A stretch of 42,710 bases of DNA from Alphaproteobacteria bacterium (GTDB lineage Bacteria; Pseudomonadota; Alphaproteobacteria; GCA-2731375), in contig JASLMH010000016.1 of NCBI GenBank assembly GCA_030746635.1, forward strand, positions 1 to 42,710. Direction: 5' to 3'. This document shows positions 18,689 to 19,243 of this stretch, in pieces. The position numbers were made by a program, and so were the translations under genes. Position 1 is the stretch's first letter. Each line of letters starts with the position of its first letter. The notes below the pieces were generated by a model, which did no database searches, had not been told where the DNA came from, and saw only the letters and a program-made list of their open reading frames with translations.

Positions 18689-19243
18689 ATGCCACGACTA
18701 CCGGAATTGACCATGGCGGCGGCCGCACCGGCGGTGCGCGAGATGATGGCGGCACAGGAACGCCTGTTCGGCTTCGTCCTCAACCCGATCAAGCAGATGG
18801 GCCATTGCCCGACCATCGCCGAAGGTCAGGTGGCGTTGACCCAGGGCATCGAGAAGGCGGGGCATATCGAAGGCAGCCTGCGTTCGCTGATCTATATGCG
18901 GGTCGCCACCCTGAACGGCTGCCCGTTCTGACTGGACATCAATGCGTCCCGTGGGATGCAGGAAGGACTAAGCGAGGACCAACTGGTCGCCGTCGGCGAC
19001 TACGCCGGCAGCCCGCATTTCTCGACCCGCGAGGCGCTGGCCCTGAAATATGCCGATCGCATCACCCTGAGCGATCAGGACGTCGATGACGCGCTGTTCG
19101 AAGAACTGCGGGCCGAGTTTGCCGAGCCGGCGGCGATCGTCGAGTTGACGGCGATCGTGGCCTTCGAGAACTTCCGCAGCAAGTTCAACCATGCCCTGCA
19201 GGTCGAGGCCAACGGCGTCTGCCCGGTGAAGCTGACGCCCTGA
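18689..19243 (+). CDS. Carboxymuconolactone decarboxylase / AhpD-like protein, predicted selenoprotein with Sec at codon 81 (TGA 18929-18931)
   Basis: ORFs 18689..18931 and 18956..19243 share one frame, separated only by TGA. The readthrough product (184 aa) is continuous CMD sequence: RSLIYMRVATLNGCPF[U]LDINASRGMQEGLSEDQLVAVGDYAGSPHFSTREALALKYADRIT. TGA falls at the second Cys of the family CxxC. Confidence 0.8.
18943..18960 (+). promoter_or_regulatory. Candidate bacterial SECIS hairpin
   Basis: UGCGUCC (18943-18949) - loop CGUG (18950-18953) - GGAUGCA (18954-18960), 7 bp including one G-U pair. 18 nt separate the UGA from the apical loop, and G is in the first two loop positions. Confidence 0.65.

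What the first reader, a model, noticed from the sequence alone, without database searches (positions are those of the whole stretch)
18689..19243. Probable selenoprotein: CMD/AhpD-family protein with CxxU (NGCPF-Sec) encoded by in-frame TGA
Seen: two ORFs in the same frame (18689..18931 and 18956..19243) are split only by TGA at 18929-18931. The conceptual readthrough product is a seamless 184-aa carboxymuconolactone decarboxylase-family protein. The TGA replaces exactly the second Cys of the redox CxxC (RVATLNGC-P-F-[TGA]-LDINASRG). No frameshift is needed and codon character continues on both sides. The TGA is followed by C (UGAC), the same context as E. coli fdhF. Known: AhpD-like CxxU selenoproteins have been reported from environmental surveys. 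Inference: this gene encodes a Sec-dependent peroxidatic or disulfide-exchange CMD protein rather than a broken gene. TGA is otherwise used as a normal stop here, so general recoding is unlikely.
Basis: partly seen in the sequence, partly recalled or inferred. Interest (0 to 1): 0.93.

Follow-up and report, generated by a model that had tools for sequence, protein, structure and literature searches.

The report
Real selenoprotein: AhpD-like CxxU enzyme
The apparent stop codon in this bacterial gene almost certainly encodes the rare amino acid selenocysteine at the active site of a small redox enzyme of a known kind (AhpD-like), in a lineage that nearly always uses selenium there but whose genes are usually annotated as broken.

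Summary
Confirmed. Codon 81 (18929-18931) of an otherwise intact 184-codon CMD/AhpD gene (18689-19243, +) is TGA, replacing the second Cys of CxxC (NGCPF-U).

Four lines support selenocysteine. (1) All 94 DNA loci examined (window, 13 species genomes, 80 metagenome contigs) have TGA at that codon. (2) A hairpin with its loop 18 nt after the UGA occurs in 92% of 77 unique sequences against 6% in synonymous-codon nulls, at no other offset tested, and covaries; it fits the bacterial SECIS model. (3) The genome has selA-selB and a selD that itself carries a Sec-type in-frame TGA; 10 of 11 genomes hosting relatives have selB. (4) Both sides of the TGA are under purifying selection.

One gap: tRNA-Sec was not found in this 83%-complete assembly, but 13 of 14 same-family genomes have it.

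It is a new member of a known kind: AhpD-like/COG2128 CxxU selenoproteins, reported since 2005. The clade is close to Sec-only, scores below every curated NCBIfam cut-off for such families (nearest NF053654, 147 of 310 bits) and lacks the Glu/Tyr/His of the AhpD proton relay; a Cys paralogue in the same genome lacks them too, so that loss is not specific to Sec.

The parts
18680..18684 (+). Shine-Dalgarno-like AGGAA, 4 nt before the ATG
   Evidence: sequence
18689..19243 (+). selenoprotein gene, 184 codons, CMD/AhpD-like (PF02627), motif C78-P-F-U81; second TGA 19241-19243 is the real stop
18929..18931 (+). in-frame UGA, Sec codon 81
   Evidence: TGA in 94 of 94 loci
18943..18960 (+). SECIS-like hairpin: 18943-18949 pairs with 18954-18960, loop CGUG 18950-18953, 18 nt after the UGA
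19246..20178 (+). LLM-class (luciferase-like, PF00296) oxidoreductase directly downstream, likely start ATG 19261; same neighbour in L081, L092, L093; probable operon partner
17600..18643 (+). Amidohydro_2 (PF04909) gene upstream; not found next to the relatives, so probably not part of the system

Best explanation
The gene encodes a true selenoprotein. SelB carrying Sec-tRNA(Sec) reads UGA-81 as selenocysteine because of a hairpin whose loop (CGUG) starts 18 nt downstream. The product is an AhpD-fold oxidoreductase with a Cys78-Pro-Phe-Sec81 redox pair. Most likely Sec81 attacks an oxidised substrate (a peroxide or a disulfide), Cys78 resolves it to a selenenylsulfide, and a cellular thiol system reduces it again. 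Shown here: conservation of the Sec codon, covarying hairpin, Sec machinery genes, predicted fold. Inferred: actual Sec insertion, the roles of Sec81 and Cys78, and the substrate.
For: TGA at codon 81 in 94 of 94 loci; about 88 of 108 database hits are stubs starting just after the UGA. Position-specific hairpin in 92% of unique sequences against 6% null, mean stem z 28.6, absent at 11 other offsets; covariation; fits the published bSECIS model. selA and selB; selD with its own in-frame TGA at HGGGUGCK; tRNA-Sec in 13 of 14 same-family genomes; selB in 10 of 11 genomes that host relatives. Purifying selection before and after the TGA. AhpD-like fold, pLDDT 86.
Against: tRNA-Sec was not found in the window's own assembly, which is 83% complete. 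bSECIS rules alone fit 70% of all TGAs in this window, so the hairpin counts only through comparison. No protein-level evidence of selenium. Substrate and redox partner unknown; the AhpD relay residues are missing.
Confidence: 0.94

Rival explanations
1. Pseudogene or sequencing error: a Cys codon mutated, or was misread, to TGA and the gene is broken.
For: One full-length close relative has Cys at this site (P0004); a Cys paralogue in the same genome could cover the function.
Against: The same TGA in 94 of 94 loci, constraint on both sides, conserved covarying hairpin.
Confidence: 0.01
2. UGA is read as another amino acid (for example Trp, by near-cognate decoding or a reassigned code) rather than Sec.
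For: Several database proteins show W, G or S at the site, and no tRNA-Sec was found in this assembly.
Against: TGA ends genes normally here, including this one; the W forms look like gene calling under another code. A hairpin of SECIS type and Sec machinery would be unexplained. The site is the redox position of CxxC.
Confidence: 0.02
3. It is a selenoprotein, but its chemistry is not peroxide or disulfide reduction: for example reductive dehalogenation, as in the CMD-family debrominase Bmp8, or reduction of a product of the neighbouring LLM flavoenzyme.
For: The closest solved structure by profile and by fold is Bmp8. The AhpD relay residues Glu, Tyr and His are replaced. An LLM oxidoreductase follows the gene in the window and in L081, L092 and L093.
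Against: Identity to Bmp8 is only about 24%. The Cys paralogue in the same genome has the same relay substitutions, so these need not signal new chemistry. The LLM neighbour is seen in few loci.
Confidence: 0.2

Closest known systems
AhpD-like CxxU selenoproteins of COG2128/YciW (Sargasso Sea 2005, PMC1088965; GOS 'AhpD-like 1', PMC2398784; reviews PMC9312934, PMC13188914)
   Same: AhpD-like/CMD protein with Sec at the second redox position (CxxU) and a SECIS hairpin just after the UGA
   Different: The published family mixes Sec and Cys members (299 Sec, 902 Cys in GOS); this clade is nearly all Sec. No member sequence of the published family was compared directly here.
NCBIfam NF053654 GroundWater_YciW, 'YciW-related (seleno)protein'
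   Same: Best-scoring curated family over the full length (147 bits, model positions 2-174 of 179)
   Different: Cut-off is 310 bits; all 16 relatives tested score 117-167, and the genome's Cys paralogue scores 147, so this is a sister group, not a member
PA0269 and D. radiodurans AhpD (AhpD-like peroxidases with solved structures)
   Same: Fold (TM 0.73-0.92 for PA0269, 0.85 for 6k40) and the position of the redox pair
   Different: Second Cys is Sec; Glu36, Tyr50 and His55 of the PA0269 relay are Ser66, Phe80 and Asn85
Bmp8 debrominase (6ohi)
   Same: Best PDB match by profile and by fold; CMD fold with CxxC
   Different: Cys enzyme, about 24% identity; no activity was tested

Membership tests
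Bacterial selenoprotein | In-frame UGA at a conserved redox position | tested here: met
   94 of 94 loci
[quoted passage not shown]
   4-nt loop CGUG, 7-bp stem, 18 nt, -12.5 kcal/mol; conserved and covarying
Bacterial selenoprotein | selA, selB and selD in the genome | tested here: met
Bacterial selenoprotein | tRNA-Sec (selC) in the genome | tested here: inconclusive
   Not found in the 83%-complete assembly; found in 13 of 14 same-family genomes
Bacterial selenoprotein | Selenium in the protein | not testable with these tools
   needs 75Se labelling or mass spectrometry
CMD / AhpD-like (PF02627) | Score above the Pfam cut-off and AhpD-like fold | tested here: met
   44.1 bits against 23; fold
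AhpD peroxidase mechanism (PA0269 / Mtb AhpD) | Proton relay Glu, Cys, His/Tyr, Cys, His | tested here: not met
   Only the redox pair (Cys78, Sec81) is kept; Glu, Tyr and His positions are Ser66, Phe80, Asn85
NF053654 GroundWater_YciW | Score at or above 310 bits | tested here: not met
   147 bits
TIGR01926 peroxidase-related enzyme | Score at or above 81.8 bits | tested here: not met
   37 bits

The most novel reading that the evidence does not exclude
A Sec-dedicated AhpD-fold subfamily whose acidic selenol makes the AhpD Glu/His proton relay unnecessary and which catalyses a reaction other than peroxide reduction, for example reductive dehalogenation or reduction of a product of the neighbouring LLM flavoenzyme.
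Probability: 0.12. Interest if true: 0.6.

Novelty: new member of a known kind. Interest (0 to 1): 0.4.

Why it matters
The gene is intact, not broken. Protein databases hold about 88 C-terminal stubs of its relatives, cut at the UGA, several of them named as whole enzymes; a curated model for this clade would repair those annotations. The clade is a clean case where Sec is kept almost without reversion to Cys, in a fold where Cys is widespread. The same genome carries a Cys paralogue, so Sec and Cys versions could be compared directly.

Tried and rejected
RNA folding energy against synonymous shuffles: excess at the site (z -3.7), but one other offset gave nearly the same (z -3.6), so it was replaced by a test of a stem at fixed position. 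bSECIS constraints alone match 646 of 917 TGAs in the window, so they were not used as evidence on their own. Rfam tRNA-Sec hits in the own genome at 51.5 and 47.3 bits passed the cut-off but are tRNA-Ser by ARAGORN. selC was also sought next to selB, where G004 has it, and was not there. Viral contigs hold no relatives. A plasmid search matched mainly the upstream amidohydrolase part. Neighbour clustering with naive ORFs was dominated by antisense ORFs and was replaced by tblastn with the window's genes.

Full report
Observation. The frame 18689-19243 (+) is open except for TGA at 18929-18931. Translation with TGA as Sec gives 184 aa with NGCPF-U at residues 76-81. The read-through product matches Pfam CMD over residues 43-123, which span the TGA.

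Comparative test. A scan of one genome per species gave 13 relatives and a metagenome scan gave 80 more. With the window that makes 94 loci. All 94 have TGA at the codon that aligns with residue 81; in 91 this was read from the NGCPF-type motif and in three from NGCPY or NGCSF. The residue three before it is Cys in all 94. In the protein database about 88 of 108 hits are 101-188 aa predictions that begin just after the UGA, many of them named 'alkylhydroperoxidase family enzyme'. One full-length close relative (P0004) has Cys. Others show W at the site, which I take to be TGA read by another code. The metagenome tool kept the best 80 of 574 relatives, so the near-absence of Cys describes the closest part of the family only. 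Against the nearest relatives dN is about 0.14-0.32 and dS above 1 on both sides of the TGA (synonymous sites are near saturation, and the script stopped before the last pair), so the part after the TGA is under selection as protein.

SECIS. In the window a 7-bp stem (18943-18949 with 18954-18960) closes a CGUG loop that starts 18 nt after the UGA; MFE -12.5 kcal/mol. The published bSECIS model asks for a 3-9 nt loop with G in its first two positions, a 4-16 bp stem, 16-37 nt spacing and MFE at or below -7.5 (PMC13188914). All are met. Those rules alone are weak here, since 70% of all TGAs in the window pass them. The informative test is comparative. A stem of at least 6 bp at that position occurs in 92% of 77 unique sequences, against a mean of 6% and a maximum of 14% in 1000 sets of synonymous-codon replacements; the mean stem length is 28.6 standard deviations above the null, and 11 other offsets in the gene show nothing comparable. 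The sequences are related, so the z value is not a probability. Compensatory changes keep the pairs. In the main group (52 sequences) 98.4% of cells pair and three pairs change on both sides; in the alphaproteobacterial group (11 sequences), whose stem sits in a slightly different register, 93.5% pair with nine double-changed cells. Loops CGUG, CGGG and GGUCU recur.

Machinery. The window's genome (5.08 Mb, 306 contigs, 83% complete) has selA and selB side by side (C26:6179-9466) and selD (C210:21907-22836) with an in-frame TGA at HGGGUGCK, the usual Sec position of SelD (from general knowledge). The selAB contig has tetranucleotide composition close to that of the window (r 0.90), within the range of the other contigs tested (0.88-0.96) and far from unrelated loci (0.50-0.60). 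Its SelB is nearest to alphaproteobacterial SelB. tRNA-Sec was not found: the Rfam hits are tRNA-Ser, and pattern and DNA searches were empty or chance-level. Among 14 other genomes of the same family 13 have a high-scoring tRNA-Sec, and ARAGORN calls tRNA-Sec with anticodon TCA in all 12 loci fetched. In one of them it follows selB directly, but it does not in this genome. A gap in the assembly is the likeliest reason, since a kept selA-selB-selD set would make little sense without selC. Of 11 genomes that host relatives of the gene, 10 have selB over the cut-off.

What the protein is. AlphaFold2 on a 14-row alignment (Cys in place of Sec) gives mean pLDDT 86 and an all-helical AhpD-like fold. 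The best PDB matches are Bmp8 debrominase, D. radiodurans AhpD and PA0269. The profile alignment puts Sec81 on Cys51 and Cys78 on Cys48 of PA0269. The PA0269 relay residues Glu36, Tyr50 and His55 (PMC3141380) fall on Ser66, Phe80 and Asn85. Across the 94 loci residue 66 is S, P, A or Y in all but two, residue 80 is F in 93 and residue 85 is N in 91. A selenol is acidic enough to do without such a relay, but the Cys paralogue of the same genome (C240:25474, NGCHFC) has the same substitutions, so the loss is not specific to Sec. My working mechanism is nucleophilic attack by Sec81, resolution by Cys78 and recycling by a cellular thiol system. This is inference.

Tree and context. In a tree of 98 rows the 89 Sec rows form one group apart from eight Cys paralogues; the only Cys row inside is P0004, a divergent metagenomic sequence. 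The tree is midpoint-rooted and the Cys rows are long, so it says nothing firm about which state is older. Members come from MAGs labelled Tectomicrobia, Alphaproteobacteria, Burkholderiales, Chloroflexi and Bacillota (the last two were left out of the tree). The window sits with three metagenome contigs (L076-L078), away from the alphaproteobacterial members although its SelB looks alphaproteobacterial, so horizontal transfer is possible but untested. An LLM-class oxidoreductase follows the gene in the window and in L081, L092 and L093. The upstream amidohydrolase is not conserved.

Novelty. CxxU AhpD-like selenoproteins of COG2128, and a CMD-domain CxxU family, were reported from the Sargasso Sea in 2005 (PMC1088965) and are in later catalogues (PMC2398784, PMC9312934, PMC13188914). 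NCBIfam release 20 holds NF053654, 'YciW-related (seleno)protein', to which this clade is a sister group below the cut-off. That the clade belongs with COG2128 rests on the JGI name given to many of its pieces and on the review tables, not on a direct COG test. I therefore call it a new member of a known kind: strongly supported, useful for annotation, modest in surprise.

Noticed in passing
G000:C210:21907-22836 (L029): selD of the same genome is itself a selenoprotein gene: in-frame TGA at HGGGUGCK, otherwise a full-length SelD.
   Followed up: partly
G000:C240:25474-25971 (L156): Cys paralogue (NGCHFC) of the window's selenoprotein in the same genome, also a sub-cut-off match to NF053654.
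   Followed up: partly
G041:C7:31584 (L040), G041:C6:56674, G001:C3:297026, G001:C5:220291, G006:C37:22240: More distant AhpD-like genes in related genomes that also contain one in-frame TGA; possible further selenoproteins or chance. A quick CxxU pattern check on L040 found nothing.
   Followed up: partly
window 21756-23147 (-): 2-hydroxyglutaryl-CoA dehydratase / benzoyl-CoA reductase B-like protein (PF06050), a fold usually tied to anaerobic metabolism.
   Followed up: no
window 20893-21759 (+): PEP-CTERM sorted protein; another protein ending in a PEP-CTERM-like VPEPATL tail lies on the selAB contig C26 near 15.9 kb.
   Followed up: no
L024, L026, L095, L130: Relatives with an apparent frameshift or deletion within the gene, probably assembly errors; TGA 81 is still present in each.
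   Followed up: no
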